Assembly: GCF_901212495.1 (NCBI RefSeq)
Contig: NZ_CAAKNY010000011.1
Span: 23,718 to 68,329 of the forward strand
Direction of reading: 5' to 3'
Length of the DNA stretch: 44,612 bases
Source of the DNA: Collinsella aerofaciens
GTDB taxonomy: Bacteria > Actinomycetota > Coriobacteriia > Coriobacteriales > Coriobacteriaceae
A program made the position numbers and the translations under genes. Below the pieces are notes generated by a model, which saw nothing but the letters and a program-made list of their open reading frames with translations, did not search any database and had not been told where the DNA came from. Within the stretch, counting starts at the first letter, position 1; each line of letters starts with the position of its first letter. Below, one piece after another: positions 7,435 to 35,908 of the stretch.

Positions 7435-7507
7435 GGATTGGTGAAAAGGGGTCAGGTAATTTTGCACCAACTTGGCGCAGATTAGCTTGACCCCTTTTCA
7501 CCAATCC
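7435..7507. repeat. Palindromic repeat, 20-bp perfect arms
   Basis: Arms 7435-7454 and 7488-7507 (GGATTGGTGAAAAGGGGTCA and its complement) enclose 33 nt that can themselves pair (TTGCACC, CTTGGCGCA). The GGTGAAA..GGGG..arm style matches the other palindromes of this window. The rest of 7508-7793 holds no recognisable gene. Confidence 0.75.
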
Positions 7508-8887: not shown

Positions 8888-8956
8888 AAGTTGCGGTGGA
8901 ATAGTTCCTGTTTGGGGGCCAGAAGGCTGGTTTCAGGAACTATTTCACCGCAACTT
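8888..8956. repeat. Palindromic repeat, 23-bp arms
   Basis: Arms 8888-8910 and 8934-8956 with one G-T type mismatch. The outer part TTGCGGTGGAATAG is nearly the same as in the palindrome at 29567-29629 (TTGCGGTGAAATAG), while the inner part differs but still pairs. It lies between the dehydrogenase and pcrA start regions. Confidence 0.8.
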
Positions 8957-9095: not shown

Positions 9096-11996
9096 ATGAC
9101 CCAGCCCTTGCCCTGGGAAAAGAATGCCGCGGTACCCGTGCCGCCCGCGCCGGAACCCGTGCCGCTCGATGCATACACCGCCCCTGCAGCGCCGGAGCCC
9201 GAGCTCGTCCCGCTCGACATCTACGACGCTCCCGCGCCGGCACCCAAGCCCGCCAAGCCGTTCGTCGACATTGACAGCCTGAACCCCGCCCAGCGCGAGG
9301 CAGTTCTGACCACCGAGGGCCCGTTGCTGGTGCTCGCCGGTGCCGGCTCGGGCAAAACCCGCGTCTTGACCTTCCGCATCGCACATATGCTCGGCGACCT
9401 GGGTGTTAAGCCTTGGCAGGTTCTCGCCATTACGTTTACCAACAAGGCTGCGGCCGAGATGCGCGAGCGTCTGGCGGCACTCATTCCCAGCGGCACCCGC
9501 GGCATGTGGGTGTGTACCTTCCATGCCATGTGCGTGCGCATGCTGCGCGAGGACGCCGACCTGCTGGGCTACACCGGTCAGTTCACCATCTACGATGATG
9601 ACGACTCAAAGCGCATGGTGCGTGATATTATGCAGGCGCTCGGCATCGAGCAAAAGCAATTCCCCATCAATATGATCCGCAGCAAGATCAGCTCGGCCAA
9701 AAACGCCATGATCGGGCCCGAGGACATGCTCAAATCCGCCGATAGCCCCAACGACAAAAAGGCCGCGCAGGTCTACTTGGAGCTGGAGCGCCGCCTGCGC
9801 GCCGCCAATGCTATGGACTTCGACGACCTGCTCGTGCGCGCGCTCGAGCTTCTGCGCACCCGCTCCGAGGTGCTCGACAAGTACCAAGAGCGCTTCCGCT
9901 ACATTAGCGTCGACGAGTATCAGGACACCAACCACGTCCAGTACGAGATCGCCAACCTGCTGGCCGCCAAGTACCAAAACCTCATGGTCGTGGGCGACGA
10001 CGACCAGTCCATTTATAGCTGGCGTGGCGCCGACATTACCAATATCCTGGACTTTGAGAAGGACTTTAAAGACTGCAAGACCGTTAAGCTGGAGCAGAAC
10101 TACCGCTCCACGGGCCATATCCTGAGCGCCGCCAACGCCGTGGTACGCCATAACTCGCAGCGCAAGGACAAGCGCCTGTTTACGGCCGAGGGCGATGGCG
10201 AGAAGATTCAGGCCTTCCAGGCGAGTGACGAGCGCGACGAGGGTCGCTGGATTGCCGGCGAGATCGAAAAGCTGCACGCCAAGGGCACGAGCTACGACGA
10301 CATCGCCGTGTTCTACCGCACCAACGCCCAGTCGCGTATCCTCGAAGATATGTTCCTGCGCGCGGGCGTGCCTTATAAGATCGTGGGCGGCACGCGATTC
10401 TTCGACCGTGCCGAGATCCGCGACGTCATGGCTTACCTCAAGATGATCGTGAACCCGGCCGACGAGATGAGCGTCAAACGCGTCATCAATACGCCGCGCC
10501 GCGGCATCGGCTCCACCTCGATCCAAAAGATCGAACAGCTGGCGCGCGACAACCGCTGCTCGTTCTTCCAGGCCTGCGAGATCGCGTGCGCCGAGACGGG
10601 CATGTTTAGCGCCAAGGTGCGCAACGGTCTGTCGAACTTTGTGTCGCTGGTGCGCGAGGGTCGCCGCATGGACGGCGAGCTCAAGGATGTTGTCGAGATG
10701 ATCGTCGATAAGACGGGCCTGCTGCAGGCTTTCCGCGCCGAAGGCACCATGGAGTCCGAGAGCCGCGCCGAGAACATCCAGGAATTCCTGGGCGTCGCCG
10801 CCGAATTTGAGGAGACGCACGAGGATATAGAGGGTACGCTCGAGAGCTTGGAAGAGCTGCGTGCAGCCGGTGTTGCCGATGTGCCTGCCGGCGTCGAGTC
10901 CGAGCCCGTCGTGGTGAGTGCGCCCGCGCCCGAGCCAGGGCCGTCCGCCCCGGCATCCTCGTTTGAGGCACTTGTCGGCGCGCGCGATGCCGCAGGTTCC
11001 AATCCACTCGATAGCCTAGCCGCCCCGGTGCTCTCGCCGCAGGATGCCCTGGCCGCCGCCATCGCGGGCAACGCGTATGCCGCGCCGACAGAGCTGCCGG
11101 CGGGTGCCGTGCATGCCGACGAGATCGAGCGCACCTACGGTCCGCTCACCTGCAAGGCGCTGCCGGCACTCATGGAGTGGCTGGCCCTGCGCTCCGACTT
11201 GGATTCCCTGGCCGGCGAGACGCATGCCATCACCATGATGACCATCCACTCCGCCAAGGGCCTGGAGTTCCCGGCGGTGTTCGTGGCCGGCATGGAGGAG
11301 GGTATCTTCCCGCACGTGCACGATTTTAGCGGCAGCGATGACCCGGGTAAGCTCGAGGAGGAGCGTCGCCTGGCCTACGTCGCCATCACGCGCGCCCGTA
11401 AGCGACTGTTCTTGACCTATGCGGCCACGCGTCGCACCTACGGCTCGACCTCTGCCAACCCGCGCTCGCGCTTCCTCAACGAGATACCGTTTGAGGATAT
11501 CGAGTTTAGCGGTATCGGTTCTGCTGGTTTTGAGGGCACGGGCTGGGAGAAGCGCGGCGACCGACACGGCACCTTTGGATCGGGTATGGGCTCGGATATG
11601 TACGGCGGCAAGGTGTTCGGTTCGCATACGCGCTCGACCGGCGGTTCCGGTTCGCGCGGCGGATCGAGCTTTGACGATTTCTTTGGCGGCAGCACTTATG
11701 GGACCGAGCGCCATCGTGGGGTCTCGCCCGACGCCGGCCGTGTTGCCTCGACCTTTGGCTCGGGCGCGCCGCGAGCCAAAAAGCCGTCGTCTAAGGTGTC
11801 GCCGACGGTGGAGCGCAAGGTCGATCGCGCCAGCGCATCGCAGGACTTTGCCGCGGGCGATACCGTGAGCCACAAGACCTTTGGCGCGGGTACCGTGATC
11901 TTGGTCGCCGGAGACATGATCGAGGTTCAATTCGAAAAGACCGGCCAGACCAAAAAGCTTATGAAGGGCTTTGCACCTATAGTGAAACTGACCTAG
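9096..11996 (+). CDS. pcrA: UvrD/PcrA-type superfamily 1 DNA helicase
   Basis: ATP-dependent 3'-5' DNA helicase for repair and clearing replication conflicts. ATG 9096 has GAGGAG just upstream; 966 aa, against about 730 for typical PcrA. Residues 1-50 are Pro/Ala-rich. Then come motif Q/I (LNPAQREAV, Walker A AGAGSGKT near residue 85), VDEYQDTN (motif II), DDDQSIYSWRGAD (III), QNYRST (IV), TIHSAKGLEFPAVFVAGMEE (V) and EEERRLAYVAITRAR (VI). About 100 residues of Ala/Pro-rich sequence (roughly 580-685) are inserted before the last helicase motifs. The C-terminus ends with a Tudor-like domain (DTVSHKTFGAGTV...), which in PcrA binds RNA polymerase. Structured elements follow the stop. Confidence 0.95.
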   Translation: MTQPLPWEKNAAVPVPPAPEPVPLDAYTAPAAPEPELVPLDIYDAPAPAPKPAKPFVDIDSLNPAQREAVLTTEGPLLVLAGAGSGKTRVLTFRIAHMLGDLGVKPWQVLAITFTNKAAAEMRERLAALIPSGTRGMWVCTFHAMCVRMLREDADLLGYTGQFTIYDDDDSKRMVRDIMQALGIEQKQFPINMIRSKISSAKNAMIGPEDMLKSADSPNDKKAAQVYLELERRLRAANAMDFDDLLVRALELLRTRSEVLDKYQERFRYISVDEYQDTNHVQYEIANLLAAKYQNLMVVGDDDQSIYSWRGADITNILDFEKDFKDCKTVKLEQNYRSTGHILSAANAVVRHNSQRKDKRLFTAEGDGEKIQAFQASDERDEGRWIAGEIEKLHAKGTSYDDIAVFYRTNAQSRILEDMFLRAGVPYKIVGGTRFFDRAEIRDVMAYLKMIVNPADEMSVKRVINTPRRGIGSTSIQKIEQLARDNRCSFFQACEIACAETGMFSAKVRNGLSNFVSLVREGRRMDGELKDVVEMIVDKTGLLQAFRAEGTMESESRAENIQEFLGVAAEFEETHEDIEGTLESLEELRAAGVADVPAGVESEPVVVSAPAPEPGPSAPASSFEALVGARDAAGSNPLDSLAAPVLSPQDALAAAIAGNAYAAPTELPAGAVHADEIERTYGPLTCKALPALMEWLALRSDLDSLAGETHAITMMTIHSAKGLEFPAVFVAGMEEGIFPHVHDFSGSDDPGKLEEERRLAYVAITRARKRLFLTYAATRRTYGSTSANPRSRFLNEIPFEDIEFSGIGSAGFEGTGWEKRGDRHGTFGSGMGSDMYGGKVFGSHTRSTGGSGSRGGSSFDDFFGGSTYGTERHRGVSPDAGRVASTFGSGAPRAKKPSSKVSPTVERKVDRASASQDFAAGDTVSHKTFGAGTVILVAGDMIEVQFEKTGQTKKLMKGFAPIVKLT

Positions 11997-11997
11997 G

Positions 11998-12097
11998 CGG
12001 CTTTCCCAGGCACGGCACTTCGGCCTTCAATCGTCGGGCATGACCTCAAGGTCTATGCCCTCCTCTTTCAGGCCGATTTGCCGCACCTGGAAAACCC
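11998..12097 (+). ncRNA. Candidate structured RNA element E1, copy b
   Basis: Overlaps the region right after the pcrA TAG. Starts GCGGCTT.CCCAG like copy a. Outer stem TCGGCCT (12020-12026) with AGGCCGA (12070-12076); inner hairpin GGGCATGACC with GGTC-T-ATGCCC (12036-12060, TCAA loop). The outside triplet is CGG/CCG here and CCG/CGG in copy a. Loop sequences TCAA..CGTCG, TCCTCTTTC, GCAC and TGGAAAACCC are shared with 2590-2692. The changed but still paired stems point to a conserved fold. Function unknown. Confidence 0.5.
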
Positions 12098-12115
12098 GTA
12101 CATCTGGCTAGACGG

Positions 12116-12208
12116 GCGCGCCGGGGGCTTTGGTCGCCTGCTCGGGCAGTCCTGCGCAAGACGGAGGCCACATTAAGTGGCCTCCTTTGCGTGCAAAACC
12201 CGCGATCG
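12116..12208 (+). ncRNA. Candidate structured element E2, left copy
   Basis: Predicted multi-branch fold: outer stem GGTCGC/GCGATC (12132-12137 with 12202-12207), hairpin CTGC-TCGG-GCAG (12138-12149), linker TCCTGC, stem CGCAA/TTGCG, and hairpin GGAGGCCAC-ATTAA-GTGGCCTCC (12163-12185). The same fold occurs on the minus strand at 14349-14449, with 22 identical bases around the first hairpin and compensatory changes in the other stems. On this strand it is in the 3' region of pcrA. Between it and the terminator (12209-12320) a CCAGATC/GATCTGG stem (near 12230 and 12286) encloses an ACGTT/AACGT hairpin; nothing else is recognisable there. Confidence 0.5.
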
Positions 12209-12320
12209 ATGTTGCCCTATACGCCCGCCCAGATCCTTGGGTAACGTTGCTGGACGAACGTCACTTTGCTCGTGCGCTTTTTGATCTGGAGAACCGGGTA
12301 GGCTGATAAATAGATATGGC

Positions 12321-12365
12321 AAGGGGCTCCCCCGTTAAAGAACGGGGGAGCCCCTTGTTGCGTTT
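12321..12365 (+). terminator. Terminator, left copy of a repeated unit
   Basis: A perfect 16-bp stem (12321-12336 with 12341-12356, AAAG loop) followed by TTGTTGCGTTTT. It is homologous to 14269-14313: same AGGGGCTC and GAGCCCCTTGTTGCGTTTT flanks, with a different but paired centre. It probably ends the pcrA/E1/E2 transcript. Confidence 0.8.
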
Positions 12366-12390
12366 TGAATGGTGCGCTTGGCTTTGATGA

Positions 12391-12418
12391 TTGATGATTT
12401 TATACGATTCAGTATAAT
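12391..12418 (+). promoter_or_regulatory. Promoter of the toxin-antitoxin-like operon
   Basis: -35 TTGATG (12391-12396), 16-bp spacer, -10 TATAAT (12413-12418), about 47 bp before the start codon. It is more AT-rich than any other promoter region here and overlaps a palindromic operator. Confidence 0.7.
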
Positions 12419-12448
12419 TTCAGATAGATACTAAAATCTAACTGAAAT
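12417..12448. promoter_or_regulatory. Palindromic operator overlapping the promoter
   Basis: ATTTCAGATAGAT (12417-12429) and ATCTAACTGAAAT (12436-12448) form an inverted repeat with one mismatch and a 6-7 bp centre. It covers the last bases of the -10 and the expected transcription start. This is the expected place for autorepression by the HTH protein encoded next, as known for AbiEi antitoxins. Confidence 0.65.
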
Positions 12449-12465
12449 GAAAACGGTGAGTGGAC

Positions 12466-13488
12466 ATGCTGCTAAATTGTCTCCCTAAAAGACTCTTCTC
12501 TTTAGAGCTCGCCATCGACTCAGAGCCAGTTGAGATGCAGATTCCTCGCATGTATCTTGAGCGGTTTTCGCTTCGCTTGGCACGACTCGGCATGTCTGAG
12601 CAAGGCCGTTTTATTGTTGCGGAACCAAAAGAACCGCCCAGTGTCATTTCGGCGCGAAATCTCGTCAATGCAGTGCGCAAGATAGATGCTCGTCCGGTGG
12701 CAATTTGCTGGGATGCTATGGATTTAGGTTTTATGCGCGCGCTTTCTTCGGAGGGGCTTGCATATATCCGAGATGAGCGAAATGCGTTTCTGCCGTTTAT
12801 CGGAGCCGTTATTTCCGATGAGGTGCTGGGTGCTTCTCTTGCTGCCCCGCTTTCGCCCCAATCTCAACGAATCGTTCTAAATCTCATTGCGGGACGATGG
12901 GTTGACTGCTCCGCCGGCGACCTAGCGCGTTTGTGTGGCAAAAGCGCGGCAAGCGTCAGCGGCTATCTTTCGGAAATCGCTGCTATAGCTCCTGGGCTGA
13001 TTATGCGTGACGGCAAAAAGCGTATATTGTGCGACGCCGGGCTGTCGACCGAGACGTTGCTGGATGGGTTTGAGGACTATCTTCGCACGCCAGTTATAGA
13101 ACGCATTCGGCTTAAGGGGACAATCAACAGGGTAGAATTGCGGGCCGTTGATGCGCTGCTTTCCGGTGTGTCTGCCCTTAGCTATATGTCCGATCTTGCC
13201 CATGAAGACTCTGCTCCAACCATTGCTCTCGAAAAGTATCAGCTAGAGGCCTTAAAAGAGCATATGGGCGACAAATGGCTGGAGGCCCAGTGGTACGAAC
13301 CGGCTGCTATCGAGATTGAGGTCTGGTCGTATCCCGTGGACGAGCCGTTCGATGTTAGTTTTGACACGACGGGTTTGCAATGTGTCGACCCGTTCTCCTT
13401 ATACGTTGCCTGCGCAAAAACGAATTACAAAGACGACCGTCTGCTCGATGCGGTCGAACAGCTCAGGAGGGCGATATGCCAAAAGTGA
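12466..13488 (+). CDS. HTH regulator / antitoxin partner of NTase toxin
   Basis: 340 aa from ATG 12466 (GGTGAG five bases upstream); GTG 12460 is an alternative. The N-terminal part (1-125) is an unassigned alpha/beta region ending FLPFIGAVI. A helix-turn-helix lies at about 129-172 (SPQSQRIVLNLI ... DLARLCGKSAASVSGYLSEI). The C-terminal region contains VDPFSLYVACAK, like the DP.xLY segment I associate with AbiEi-type antitoxins. Unlike classic AbiEi, the HTH is central, not N-terminal. The 3' end overlaps the next gene by 13 bases, so the two are coupled. Lower GC than neighbours suggests transfer. Role as antitoxin and autorepressor is inference from gene order, HTH and the palindromic operator. 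Confidence 0.75.
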   Translation: MLLNCLPKRLFSLELAIDSEPVEMQIPRMYLERFSLRLARLGMSEQGRFIVAEPKEPPSVISARNLVNAVRKIDARPVAICWDAMDLGFMRALSSEGLAYIRDERNAFLPFIGAVISDEVLGASLAAPLSPQSQRIVLNLIAGRWVDCSAGDLARLCGKSAASVSGYLSEIAAIAPGLIMRDGKKRILCDAGLSTETLLDGFEDYLRTPVIERIRLKGTINRVELRAVDALLSGVSALSYMSDLAHEDSAPTIALEKYQLEALKEHMGDKWLEAQWYEPAAIEIEVWSYPVDEPFDVSFDTTGLQCVDPFSLYVACAKTNYKDDRLLDAVEQLRRAICQK

Positions 13489-14243
13489 AGGGAATAGAGC
13501 GATTTGCCGACGCCATGAGCAGTTGCAAAGGTGGTTACGTCCTTATTGGTGGAGGGGCCTGCAGCGTTCTATTTGACAGCGAAGGTGATTCGTTTAGGGC
13601 AACCGAAGATTTGGATGTCGTCGTAATTGTTGATGGGGAAGGCGTTGAATTCGCCGCTGCATTGTGGGCATTTATCAAAGCAGCTGGATACGAGGTTGGA
13701 AAGGTCGGCGATGGAAAGTGCACTTACTATCGGTTCTGTTTGCCCAAAGGATCAAGGCGAGCCCTAGACTATCCCGGTCAAATCGAGTTGTTTGCCCGAC
13801 ATCCCGATTTTGTGCTCGAAGACGAAATGAGCGAGGTAGCTCCTCTTTCCTTTGACGGGGCGATATCGAGTCTTTCCGCCATTATTCTCGACGATGGCTA
13901 CTACGAATTTATTCGCGACAACACAACGAACGTAGAGGGCATCACGTTGCTCGATGCGCTCCATATCATCCCCCTCAAGATGCGTGCGCACATTGATATC
14001 AACAGGAGCTATGAAGAAGGGCGTCATTGCAACGATATAGATCGGCGGAAGCATCGTTCAGATGTTGCTCGACTTGCCGGTTTGTTGTCGTCCTCAGCAC
14101 GTTTGGAGCTAACGGGGCAAATGAGGGTTGATGCGGAGGATTTTCTTACGGACTTTAATTCGTATGTAAATCGGCAGACCAACCGTAAGGAAAGGGCTCG
14201 GCTTCAGGACACGTTATCGTTTCTCGAAAAGGTCTACCTATAG
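13476..14243 (+). CDS. AbiEii/AbiGii-like nucleotidyltransferase (toxin)
   Basis: 255-aa protein of the Pol-beta-type nucleotidyltransferase superfamily. The N-terminal motif GGGACSVLF (residues 25-33) and RATEDLD with metal-binding Asp45 and Asp47 match the hG[GS]...R.T.DLD pattern of AbiEii/MNT enzymes. The later stretch LKMRAHIDINRSYEEG..NDIDRRKHRSDVARL resembles the conserved Lys/Asp-rich helix of AbiEii. AGGAGG at 13465-13470 precedes ATG 13476, inside the end of the upstream gene. AbiEii relatives transfer nucleotides to tRNA or protein targets and give phage defence or plasmid stability. It ends 25 bp before a terminator that matches the one upstream of the operon. Target unknown. Confidence 0.8.
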   Translation: MPKVKGIERFADAMSSCKGGYVLIGGGACSVLFDSEGDSFRATEDLDVVVIVDGEGVEFAAALWAFIKAAGYEVGKVGDGKCTYYRFCLPKGSRRALDYPGQIELFARHPDFVLEDEMSEVAPLSFDGAISSLSAIILDDGYYEFIRDNTTNVEGITLLDALHIIPLKMRAHIDINRSYEEGRHCNDIDRRKHRSDVARLAGLLSSSARLELTGQMRVDAEDFLTDFNSYVNRQTNRKERARLQDTLSFLEKVYL

Positions 14244-14268
14244 GCACCTTGATTCGTTATGTATAGCA

Positions 14269-14313
14269 GGGGCTCTTCCGTTGATGAACGGAAGAGCCCC
14301 TTGTTGCGTTTTG
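14269..14313 (+). terminator. Terminator, right copy of the repeated unit
   Basis: A perfect 15-bp stem (14269-14283 with 14288-14302, GATG loop) then TGTTGCGTTTT. It shares its flanks and downstream sequence with 12321-12365, in the same orientation, so the two-gene module lies between direct repeats. It serves as the module's terminator. Confidence 0.85.
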
Positions 14314-14348
14314 ATTGTTGTTGCTAGTCGGAGGCTCGCCTGGATGGG

Positions 14349-14449
14349 GCGCGGGGTTTGGTCGATCGCGAGTTCCGCACGAGCCGGAGAGTACTTAATG
14401 TGCTCTCCGTGCGAGCAGGACTGCCCGAGCAGGCGATCAAACCCCGCGC
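14349..14449 (-). ncRNA. Candidate structured element E2, right copy
   Basis: On the minus strand, downstream of manA. Outer stem GCGCGGGGTTT with AAACCCCGCGC plus GATCGC/GCGATC; hairpin CTGC-TCGG-GCAG; TCCTGC linker; stem CGCAC/GTGCG; hairpin GGAGAGCAC-ATTAA-GTACTCTCC. The last two stems differ from the left copy (CGCAA/TTGCG, GGAGGCCAC/GTGGCCTCC) yet remain paired. Loops and linkers are identical. No T-run terminator follows on this strand, since the next hairpin is oriented for the plus strand. Confidence 0.5.
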
Positions 14450-14480
14450 TCATCCCGGCGAGCGCTCGGGGATCGGTAGC

Positions 14481-15413
14481 TTACAGGTGGCTGATGATCA
14501 GATCCATTTTGCCTTCGAGTTCGATCTGGTCCACGGTGCTCGGAGCCAGCAGGTGGCTTCCCTTGTGGACGGGGTCGCCGCAGACGGTGCCTTCGCCGTC
14601 GATGACCGACAGGCACATGAAGGGCCAGCGCTGGTCGAGGGTCTTGTTGCCGTCAACACGTACGCGATCGACGGTGTAGCAGGAGTTAGACTCGAGTTCG
14701 GTCACGCCGCCCACCTCGGGCGCGGTCACCGTGCCATCGGTCGGAGCCTGAGCATCAAAGTCGATGCAGTCGAGGCTCTGCTCAATGTGCAGCGGGCGCA
14801 GTTTGCCGTCGGTGCCGGGACGGTCGTAGTCGTACAGGCGATAGGTGACGTCGCTCGACTGCTGCGTCTCCAAAATGAGCGTGCCGGTCTTGACGGCGTG
14901 CACGGTACCGGAATCGATCTGGAAAAAGTCGCCCTTGTGAATCGGCAGCACGTTGAGCATGTCGTCCCAACGGCCTTCCTCGATCATCTGCGCGGCCTCG
15001 GCGCGGCCATGCGCGCGCTGGCCGACGATGATCGTGGCGCCGGGCTCGCAGTCCAGCACATACCAGCACTCGGTCTTGCCCAGGCTGCCGTTCTCGTGCT
15101 CGGCGGCGTACTCGTCGTTGGGATGAACCTGGATCGAAAGATCGTCCTTGGCGTCCAGAATCTTAATGAGCAGCGGGAACTCCTTGCCCTCGCAGTTGCC
15201 AAAGAGCTCGCGGTGCTCGGTCCACAGCCACGACAGCGTGTGACCGGCATACGGGCCCTCCGCAATCTGGCAGTCGCCGTTGGGATGGGCCGAGATGGCC
15301 CAGCACTCACCGATGGGGCCCTCGGGAATGTCGTAGCCAAATACGGTTTCGAGCTGGCGGCCGCCCCAGATCTTCTCGTGGAAGATCGGCGTCAGTTTAA
15401 TCAAATCGGACAT
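14481..15413 (-). CDS. manA: Mannose-6-phosphate isomerase, class I-type
   Basis: Zinc enzyme interconverting mannose 6-phosphate and fructose 6-phosphate, 310 aa, as in the short bacterial type. Start at 15413 is preferred because GGGGG lies seven bases upstream; ATG 15419 would leave almost no spacing. Visible signatures: EKIWGG near the N-terminus, IKILDAKDDLSIQVHPND (His and Gln metal ligands in QVHPND, 95-100), a Glu in KTECWYVL, and GTVHA with the last His ligand. The GntR regulator at 15492-16211 lies upstream on the same strand with a 78-bp gap, so they may form one operon. A structured element lies beyond its stop. Confidence 0.95.
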   Translation of the reverse strand: MSDLIKLTPIFHEKIWGGRQLETVFGYDIPEGPIGECWAISAHPNGDCQIAEGPYAGHTLSWLWTEHRELFGNCEGKEFPLLIKILDAKDDLSIQVHPNDEYAAEHENGSLGKTECWYVLDCEPGATIIVGQRAHGRAEAAQMIEEGRWDDMLNVLPIHKGDFFQIDSGTVHAVKTGTLILETQQSSDVTYRLYDYDRPGTDGKLRPLHIEQSLDCIDFDAQAPTDGTVTAPEVGGVTELESNSCYTVDRVRVDGNKTLDQRWPFMCLSVIDGEGTVCGDPVHKGSHLLAPSTVDQIELEGKMDLIISHL

Positions 15414-15491
15414 ATTCATACCCCCATGGTGTTGTGCGGTCGCCCCTTCTAAACATAATGAGCGTCCGCATGACTACAAAACTACAAAAAC

Positions 15492-27984: not shown

Positions 27985-28040
27985 TAGTCATTGGGGACGT
28001 TCTTTAATGACTAGTCGTTTAAGAACGTCCCCAATGACTA
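27985..28040. repeat. Two 29-bp repeat units in inverted pair
   Basis: Units 27985-28013 (minus sense) and 28012-28040 (plus sense) face each other and together form a perfect 20-bp hairpin (27985-28004 with 28021-28040). The last three bases, CTA, are the stop codon (TAG) of the minus-strand zinc-ribbon gene. Same unit as at 2-30 and 29698-29726. Confidence 0.85.
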
Positions 28041-29154: not shown

Positions 29155-29565
29155 TCATGCCGCGCAAGCCCTGTCGCATGCGTCACAAAGACCGTGCTCG
29201 CTCGTTTGATGATGGACACCGATGCCCAGGCACAAGGTCGCGAGAACTATACGAGCGCCCGTGATGCTGCGGCCGTGTTGCAGCGCCTGGCGGCGGGGAC
29301 AGTCGCGACGCCCGCGCTGTGCGAGCGGGCGCGCGGATATCTGCTGGCTCAGGAAGACGCGCGCGGTATTGTCGAAGGCGTTCCCGGCGGCGTTTTGGTC
29401 GCGCACAAAACGGGCAGCCTGGCGCATGCTCAGCACGATGTCGCAATCGTCTACGCCGAGCGTCCTTACGTGCTGGCAATCCTCACCCAAGACCTCGAGC
29501 GCGAACAGGCCCTAGCCCTCGAGCGCGACATTTCCTTCGCCATCAACGCTCGCGCCCACTCCTAA
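29155..29565 (+). pseudogene. Remnant of a class A beta-lactamase-like serine hydrolase
   Basis: The open frame holds only the C-terminal part of a Beta-lactamase2-like protein: VLARLMMDTDAQAQGRENYT then SARDAAAVLQRL, and the third active-site motif KTG in VLVAHKTGSLAHAQHDVAIVY, ending LTQDL. The Ser-x-x-Lys and Ser-x-Asn motifs expected 100-180 residues earlier are missing; a stop lies at 29152 in this frame and the zinc-ribbon gene starts nearby on the other strand. GTG 29194 could start a 123-aa product, but it would lack the catalytic serine. A 5'-truncated, probably inactive gene is the best reading. The stop TAA is followed at once by palindromic repeats. Confidence 0.7.
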
Positions 29566-29566
29566 C

Positions 29567-29629
29567 TTGCGGTGAAATAGGGATTGTACTTGCTGTTAGA
29601 AGGCGTATTCAGTCCCTATTTCACCGCAA
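29567..29629. repeat. Palindromic repeat, 17-bp perfect arms
   Basis: TTGCGGTGAAATAGGGA (29567-29583) with its complement (29613-29629). The outer 14 bases match the palindrome at 8888-8956; the inner arm is GGGA here and TTCCTG there. It starts one base after the stop codon of the beta-lactamase remnant. Confidence 0.8.
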
Positions 29630-29640
29630 CTTAGAGGGTC

Positions 29641-35571: not shown

Positions 35572-35908
35572 TATAATGCGCTACGTTCCTGCCAGGCTGT
35601 GGTTGCGGACGGACGTAATGTCCATCCTAGTCCAAGACAGACGCGGTCAAAGGGATCCACGTAAGCGACCGCGTGCGCGCGGCGCGATCATGGCGCGTCC
35701 TAGATGTAAGCCGCACCGTCCGTTCTACTTTCTTTGGGGCAATACCGCCTCGCGGGCGAGCGGGCCAGTCGTGAAGGTGGCTACGGCCTCCCGAGCAAAC
35801 ACCCCGGTGCGCAAGTGTGGGGTCAAATACCAGGTCAGCTGGTGGGAACAACCCGTTATTCCGCGCAACGCACGGATTGTATACGACACAGAAGGCAGGG
35901 TAGTGGAC
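35572..35908 (+). promoter_or_regulatory. Promoter and long structured leader of the lipoprotein gene
   Basis: TATAAT at 35572-35577 is a good -10; the -35 is weak. The following 330 nt are not coding in style, although the lipoprotein frame is open through them. Stems visible: CGGACGG/CCGTCCG (35606-35612 with 35716-35722), inside it ACGCGGTC/GACCGCGT (35641-35648 with 35667-35674), and later a CTCG/CGAG hairpin and a CCCC/GGGG hairpin. I do not recognise a known riboswitch or T-box (no T-box core). Confidence 0.45.

What the first reader, a model, noticed from the sequence alone, without database searches (positions are those of the whole stretch)
12116..14449. Inverted structured elements E2 flank the toxin-antitoxin module
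Element E2 lies on the plus strand at 12116-12208 and on the minus strand at 14349-14449. A 22-base block around the CTGC-TCGG-GCAG hairpin is identical; the ATTAA-loop hairpin and another stem differ but stay paired (GGAGGCCAC/GTGGCCTCC versus GGAGAGCAC/GTACTCTCC; CGCAA/TTGCG versus CGCAC/GTGCG). Either E2 is an RNA found in 3' regions (after pcrA and after manA), or it is the inverted end of a 2.3-kb mobile unit carrying the module. Covariation favours RNA; placement also fits a mobile unit.
Basis: partly seen in the sequence, partly recalled or inferred. Interest (0 to 1): 0.75.

Follow-up and report, generated by a model that had tools for sequence, protein, structure and literature searches.

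The report
Hairpin repeats with ever-changing stems
The two flanking elements belong to a large family of DNA hairpin repeats, spread through the gut bacterium Collinsella and its relatives, whose tip stays the same while the paired stem is rewritten again and again; strains without the gene pair between them show that the repeats do not depend on it.

Summary
In detail: two inverted E2 copies flank the two-gene module, far beyond chance. But E2 is neither the end of that module nor, on present evidence, specifically a 3' RNA. It is a dispersed repeat: a conserved, asymmetric head of about 70 nt at the tip of long arms (median 31 bp) that differ between loci while pairing is kept. Model matches occur in 61 of 65 Coriobacteriaceae genomes and 135 of 296 sampled from the class, at unrelated genes, in either orientation. 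Of 16 strains compared at pcrA-manA, 8 carry E2a alone, 3 both E2s without the module, 5 both plus the module. The window's E2a is a recombinant of two alleles, so its arms no longer match. Stem mismatches show no G-U excess (GU 71, AC 81), alleles can differ over whole arms while flanks stay up to 98-99% identical, and losses leave single-arm scars. Best reading: a REP/RPE-like palindromic DNA repeat with arms renewed by template switching or conversion, tolerated where the palindrome nuclease SbcCD is mostly undetected. Against it: in distant genomes 23 of 28 copies read are sense to the gene before them. Mobility enzyme and function are unknown.

The parts
12111..12236 (+). E2a, element after pcrA: left arm 12111-12136, head 12137-12206, right arm 12207-12236. 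Recombinant: the arms come from two alleles and do not pair.
   Evidence: CM match 89.3 bits; stem score only 5.9; shared stretches of 33 nt with L081 (left) and 32 nt with L035/L012 (right)
14338..14458 (-). E2b, element after manA; outer arms paired (innermost stem 14347-14364 with 14434-14451), head between them
   Evidence: CM match 119.7 bits; hairpin scan; fold z-score -7.6
12320..12357 (.). E1, 17-bp hairpin with 4-nt loop followed by TTGTTGCGTTTT (terminator-like), left copy flanking the module
   Evidence: the repeat finder I4 and D1
14268..14303 (.). E1, right copy; direct repeat of the left one (85% over 53 nt). The module-free strains printed have a single E1.
   Evidence: strain comparison
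12466..13488 (+). first gene of the inserted two-gene module (340 aa); below threshold in a codon-usage gene caller trained on a Collinsella genome; no Pfam/NCBIfam/PADLOC match
13476..14243 (+). second gene of the module (255 aa), also below threshold; weak similarity to a nucleotidyltransferase-like protein (5uvd, E=0.095)
9159..11996 (+). pcrA (UvrD-type helicase), left neighbour
14481..15419 (-). manA (phosphomannose isomerase type I), right neighbour, convergent

Best explanation
E2 is a copy of a dispersed palindromic DNA repeat of Coriobacteriia. A conserved asymmetric head of about 70 nt sits at the tip of a long inverted repeat. The head is the recognised part; for the arms only the pairing counts (inferred). 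The repeat lies mostly in intergenic DNA with its CTGCTC side close to a coding end, alone or in tail-to-tail pairs. Arms stay matched, and are rewritten in blocks, because replication template switching or conversion between copies copies one arm onto the other (inferred from the pattern). Copies are lost by palindrome deletion. Near-absence of the hairpin nuclease SbcCD probably lets such palindromes persist (inferred). At pcrA-manA the two E2s were most simply in place first; the two-gene module entered between them, beside the E1 hairpin, giving E1 direct repeats (order inferred from the strain states).
For: Copies at unrelated loci: 16 of 16 genomes (15 Collinsella records, 1 Coriobacteriaceae MAG; 2 further handles were not held) with 25-50 CM matches each, some being reverse-strand echoes of palindromic arms; 61 of 65 family genomes; 135 of 296 class genomes, heads recognisable by eye in the loci read. 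Arms: 19 of 20 outer pairs show changes on both sides, 94.9% of cells paired against 35-46% when slid. No RNA wobble signature: 2,644 stem pairs in 83 of 89 stems, GU 71, AC 81, other 80; by context sense tandem 24/27, convergent 8/5, antisense tandem 28/37, divergent 8/11 (GU/AC). Close alleles: 16 paired and 18 single changes, the single ones leaving GU 6, AC 9, other 3. Orientation in G008, G011 and window: 28 sense, 31 antisense, 1 unknown. Polarity to the nearest coding end 67 of 83 (1 tie), p about 7e-9; within 35 nt 54 against 6 of 84. All 12 close pairs in G008 and G011 run + then -. Arms replaced while flanks are 90-99% identical at 3 loci (more). Single-arm or half-element scars. In frame inside a transporter gene in 2 genomes. 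SbcD model without match in 57 of 65 family genomes; 13 of 14 controls match, 8 over cut-off. Strain states 8/3/5. Template switching as a mechanism for such stems: PMC8794818 (abstract and start of introduction).
Against: No new insertion was caught with a clean target site; differences between G008 and G034 read as losses or replacements, and E2b could be lost in 8 strains rather than gained. No transposase found: none of 14 Y1_Tnp loci (about 1.5 kb each side, 6 of 7 genomes) has an E2; no other gene family was tested. Four genomes have SbcD over the cut-off and still carry 5-23 matches. In distant genomes 23 of 28 copies read are sense to the gene before them, and the sister head family E3 is sense after a gene in 8 of 8 close cases; both fit a transcript-level role. 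The lean to A-C in antisense copies (37 against 28) is the direction RNA selection would give. One close pair in the listed matches of another genome (G308:C22, 54934 and 55087) is same-strand, against the tail-to-tail rule. Gene calls come from my own codon-usage caller.
Confidence: 0.62

Rival explanations
1. E2 is a transcribed RNA element at operon junctions and mRNA ends: a long stem that blocks decay or is cut by RNase III, with a head bound by a protein, conserved for its RNA structure.
For: Copies lie within 35 nt of a coding end on the 5' side in 54 of 84; the junctions thrC-thrB (7 of 30 low-copy loci) and ispF-cysS (6 of 30) recur in different genomes; strong pairing; 23 of 28 sense in distant genomes; E3 sense in 8 of 8 close cases.
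Against: 31 of 60 copies in two Collinsella genomes and the window are antisense to the neighbouring gene with the same head, and 15 of 29 low-copy ones are antisense in tandem context; no G-U excess; CTGC/GCAG hairpin not conserved; no Rfam family on E2 (window; one E2 in L307).
Confidence: 0.2
2. E2 is a long bidirectional terminator or insulator hairpin shared by genes, with no mobility; arms drift under selection for a stable hairpin only.
For: 225 of 226 perfect stems of 14 bp or more in 1.6 Mb of G034 are non-coding; long hairpins are a general habit of this genome.
Against: No TTTT within 12 nt after the right arm in 83 of 83 intact stems; about 70 nt of head conserved across the class, which a terminator does not need; copies between operon genes and inside a reading frame.
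Confidence: 0.12
3. E2a and E2b are the inverted ends of a 2.3-kb mobile unit carrying the two-gene module.
For: Geometry in the window; 5 of 5 module strains have both E2s.
Against: 3 strains have both E2s without the module and 8 have E2a alone; the 4 more distant homologs of the second gene lie at other loci without E2 nearby; E2 occurs at dozens of unrelated loci; E1, not E2, is the sequence doubled around the module.
Confidence: 0.03

Closest known systems
REP / BIME / REPIN (tagged repetitive extragenic palindromes)
   Same: Extragenic, palindromic, single or in inverted dimers, many copies; preserved palindromes with complementary stem changes are noted for REPs (PMC2817692 passages; PMC3733652 passages)
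   Different: REPs are 20-40 bp with a GTAG or CGTC tag; E2 is 98-165 bp, has a head of about 70 nt and a different arm at each locus; no Y1_Tnp gene with E2 nearby was found
Rickettsia palindromic elements (RPE)
   Same: 105-146 bp, long hairpin, intergenic and also in frame inside protein genes (PMC2229807 passages)
   Different: No sequence link tested; locus-specific, replaced arms around a fixed head are not described in the passages read
ERIC/IRU and Correia/NEMIS elements
   Same: About 100-200 bp, stem-forming, mainly intergenic, can be co-transcribed (PMC2229807 passages)
   Different: Those have terminal inverted repeats and target duplications (table in PMC2229807); E2 has no shared terminal repeat
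Template-switch-maintained hairpins
   Same: Perfect stems and multi-base paired changes in one event (PMC8794818 abstract and start of introduction)
   Different: Described there for RNA genes; here it would act on a dispersed DNA repeat

Membership tests
REP/BIME | short (20-40 bp) palindrome with a shared stem sequence | tested here: not met
   98-165 bp, median 121, with locus-specific arms
REP/BIME | GTAG or CGTC tag at one foot of the hairpin | tested here: not met
   no shared bases at the foot in the 60 copies printed with 10-nt flanks; read by eye, not computed
REP/BIME | cognate RAYT gene flanked by the repeat | tested here: not met
   14 Y1_Tnp places in 6 of 7 genomes, no E2 in their loci
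REP/BIME | inverted dimers in extragenic space | tested here: met
   12 of 12 close pairs in G008 and G011 run + then -; one same-strand pair in G308
MITE | terminal inverted repeats shared by all copies | tested here: not met
   arms differ between loci
MITE | target site duplication | tested here: inconclusive
   none seen at the E2b present/absent junction, but insertion and deletion cannot be told apart there
Rickettsia palindromic element | hairpin element able to sit in frame inside genes | tested here: met
   two genomes, same position of an OPT-like transporter, so probably one event; mobility itself not observed
Rickettsia palindromic element | sequence of a described RPE family | not tested
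   no RPE sequences were fetched
Structured RNA (Rfam) | match to a curated family | tested here: not met
   whole window at gathering: only raiA elsewhere; 11950-14600 at E up to 10: matches on E2 only at E 0.99 and 6.9
Structured RNA (Rfam) | helix changes through G-U intermediates | tested here: not met
   GU 71 against AC 81; only the small convergent group has more GU (8 against 5)

The most novel reading that the evidence does not exclude
E2 (and its sister head type E3) would be a hairpin-borne repeat that passes on its pairing but not its stem sequence: one enzyme or factor recognises the head on extruded hairpin DNA, and each copy's arms are written anew from the site it occupies or from another copy by template switching, a strategy open to this class because SbcCD has largely been lost.
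Probability: 0.28. Interest if true: 0.82.

Novelty: new variant of a known kind. Interest (0 to 1): 0.64.

Why it matters
Compensating changes in a stem are usually read as proof of an RNA. Here is a class-wide family with very strong covariation and no clear sign that RNA pairing is what is kept, so it is a natural test of how far template switching alone can mimic RNA covariation. It also offers, inside culturable gut bacteria, dozens of long palindromes per genome with visible arm replacement and deletion, in a lineage where the palindrome nuclease SbcCD is mostly undetected.

Tried and rejected
The exact 18-base core has no match in the viral contigs, so a phage origin got no support. A first gene caller trained on all long frames was replaced, because high-GC shadow frames could mislead it; the orientation counts hardly changed. 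Considered and not tested: E2 as replication or gyrase site; E2 arms as guides. No protein structure was predicted.

Rows dropped or added: of 68 pattern loci, those outside Collinsella/Coriobacteriaceae lack the element shape by eye; among the Collinsella ones L003 has a broken right half and L009, L029, L047 and L052 are cut by contig ends; 34 distinct sequences remained and 24 went into A1. Two weak partners (L167:1729, L182:1588) were added to the list by hand. 6 of 89 stems with scores under 12 left the wobble count. In one search, L048 and L088 are one genome and count once; strains whose contig ends inside the site (L003, L009, L024) were not counted. L259 and L260 were printed with a strand I had assumed; they are left out of the 28. 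Of the 15 'block' edges several are register artefacts or may join non-orthologous loci; I rest the claim on loci shown.

Full report
What is there. The 20-base core of E2 occurs twice in the window, in inverted orientation, with none expected. Scanning one genome per species for its 18-base centre gave 68 stretches. Those in Collinsella and one Coriobacteriaceae MAG have the element (one, L003, is broken and four are cut by contig ends); the others lack its shape by eye. Lining up 24 of 34 distinct copies shows the design: two outer arms, different between loci but complementary, around a conserved head with one inner hairpin of variable sequence. Nineteen of 20 outer pairs have changes on both sides, 94.9% of cells pair, and sliding the partner by 1-3 columns drops this to 35-46%. 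In 83 intact stems the arms are 18-53 bp (median 31) and the element 98-165 bp.

How far it spreads. A covariance model finds 25-50 matches in each of 16 genomes, matches in 61 of 65 genomes of the family, and in 135 of 296 genomes drawn from the class, the last two under stricter filters. Because the arms are palindromic, some matches are reverse-strand echoes. After removing these, G008 and G011 hold 28 and 30 copies in my list. In distant genomes the head is still recognisable by eye. In low-copy genomes E2 often sits between genes of one operon, named here from the translated starts by recall: thrC-thrB (7 of 30 loci), ispF-cysS (6 of 30), also serC-serA, ftsY-ffh, map-infA.

Orientation. 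In 60 copies (58 plus the window's two) the gene on the 5' side of the head is sense in 28, antisense in 31, undetermined in 1. Of 29 low-copy elements 8 are sense and 15 antisense in tandem context, 5 divergent, 1 unclear; of 28 in distant genomes 23 are sense and 5 antisense. So there is no overall strand rule, but the distant set leans clearly to sense. What holds more widely is polarity: the CTGCTC side is nearer to a coding end in 67 of 83, and within 35 nt in 54 of 84 against 6 of 84 for the other side. All 12 close pairs in G008 and G011 run + then -, tail to tail; two of these pairs are copies of one duplicated region (L178, L179). The match list of another genome shows a same-strand close pair (G308:C22).

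RNA or DNA. A stem kept as RNA tolerates G-U but not A-C. In 2,644 stem pairs of 83 elements there are 71 G-U, 81 A-C and 80 other mismatches. G-U against A-C is 24/27 in sense tandem copies, 8/5 in convergent ones, 28/37 in antisense tandem and 8/11 in divergent ones. For antisense copies RNA selection would favour A-C on the element strand, so 28/37 is a slight lean that way; the differences are small throughout. Among close alleles, 16 changes are paired and 18 single, the single ones leaving 6 G-U, 9 A-C, 3 other. This fits a DNA inverted repeat with symmetry restored by copying. It does not exclude an RNA role, since template switching can also maintain RNA stems (PMC8794818, abstract and start of introduction).

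Arms are rewritten. At orthologous loci of G008 and G034 with flanks 90-99% identical, three elements have new arms that are again matched (L127:2160, L145:16542, L153:2133); 9 of the 29 comparisons printed have the same length in both or differ by at most 1-2 nt, and others had no ortholog in the part of G034 I held. Other loci show an outer arm kept and an inner arm replaced on both sides (locus 5). Losses leave traces: one arm without partner in G034 opposite L127:19435, half an element in G008 opposite G034:560368, and a deletion followed by an insert of about 1.5 kb at L132. At L150 the other strain has a short hairpin without the head.

The window site. Among 16 strains, 8 have E2a only (intergenic 284-299 nt), 3 have E2a, one E1 and E2b (441-442 nt), and 5, the window included, have the module between two E1 copies (2389-2490 nt in the four printed). 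The simplest order is E2a, then E2b, then the module; E1 is what is doubled around it. E2b is itself present or absent, without a visible target duplication. The window's E2a joins the left arm of one allele to the right arm of another, with the switch inside the head, which explains its unpaired arms.

Tolerance of palindromes. G034 has 226 perfect stems of 14 bp or more in 1.6 Mb, 225 in non-coding DNA, none in a block-shuffled control; 65 reach 20 bp, 15 of them E2. The SbcD model has no match in 57 of 65 family genomes and passes the cut-off in 4; of 14 control genomes 13 match and 8 pass. The 4 SbcD-positive genomes still carry 5-23 E2 matches, so this is a permissive condition at most.

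A second head. The same census shows a sister design (E3) with head TTTCCGCAGGAC...TGTCCGAGGAC; it shares TTCCGCA and the TGTCCGAG motif with the reverse strand of many E2 copies and has the TTCCGCA side away from the coding end in 10 of 11 (E2 in the same scan: 11 of 16). Three shuffled 7-mers gave 0, 1 and 4 flanking stems in half of the sequence, against 29 for TTCCGCA in the whole. No Rfam family reaches threshold on it in the six loci scanned.

Inside a gene. In G056 and G048 E2 lies in frame within an OPT-like transporter (name by recall), in a stretch missing from the G034 homolog; the G008 homolog has the same number of gaps, its alignment was not printed. In-frame insertion is described for Rickettsia elements (PMC2229807 passages).

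Literature. Searches for Collinsella or Coriobacteriia with repeats, palindromes or structured RNA motifs (14 of 14 listed; 46, none; 2 of 2; 20 of 27; 10 of 547) and for SbcCD with long palindromes (84, 7 of 7) listed no paper that, by title and abstract start, describes this family. PMC8040213 names one 51-bp Collinsella motif upstream of L7/L12 (passage). The library lacks most subscription journals and the last listing is a small part, so this is not proof of novelty.

Verdict. A new variant of the interspersed palindromic repeat, with fixed head and renewed arms. Shown: distribution, anatomy, strain states, arm replacement, scars, lack of a wobble signature. Inferred: head recognition, template switching or conversion, order of events at the site, the role of missing SbcCD. 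The recount (23 of 28 sense in distant genomes) was already weighed as 'mostly sense', so the odds stand.

Noticed in passing
window 8888-8956, 29562-29634, 27985-28040, 7435-7507: Further long hairpins. The first two share arms of the type TTGCGGTGRAATAG, which recurs in the G034 hairpin list, and one has GGGGACGTTCTT arms; other repeat families of the same genome.
   Followed up: partly
window 35587-35847 (+): raiA RNA (RF03072), 145 bits.
   Followed up: no
window 12320-12357 and 14268-14303: E1 hairpins flank the module as direct repeats; both score just under the gathering cut-off of Rfam Ref55, an Enterococcus sRNA, probably only a shared terminator shape.
   Followed up: partly
G034 about 298048-299611 (locus L288): About 1.5 kb insert with inverted ends TGGCGCGCGCAGA... 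inside a deleted E2, flanked by a 10-bp repeat GTGGCTCCGG: looks like an insertion sequence.
   Followed up: no
G034 295695, 377356, 392133, 1462732 and others: Sister head family E3, same design and polarity; 8 of 8 close copies lie downstream of a gene end.
   Followed up: partly
L178 and L179 (G011): A duplicated region carries the same inverted E2 pair twice in C. stercoris, in opposite orientation.
   Followed up: no
L218 1501-1619, L223 1501-1622: E2 in frame within a transporter gene in two genomes, with different arms.
   Followed up: yes
G308:C22:54934-55053 and 55087-55208: Two E2 matches on the same strand 33 nt apart, unlike the tail-to-tail pairs elsewhere.
   Followed up: no
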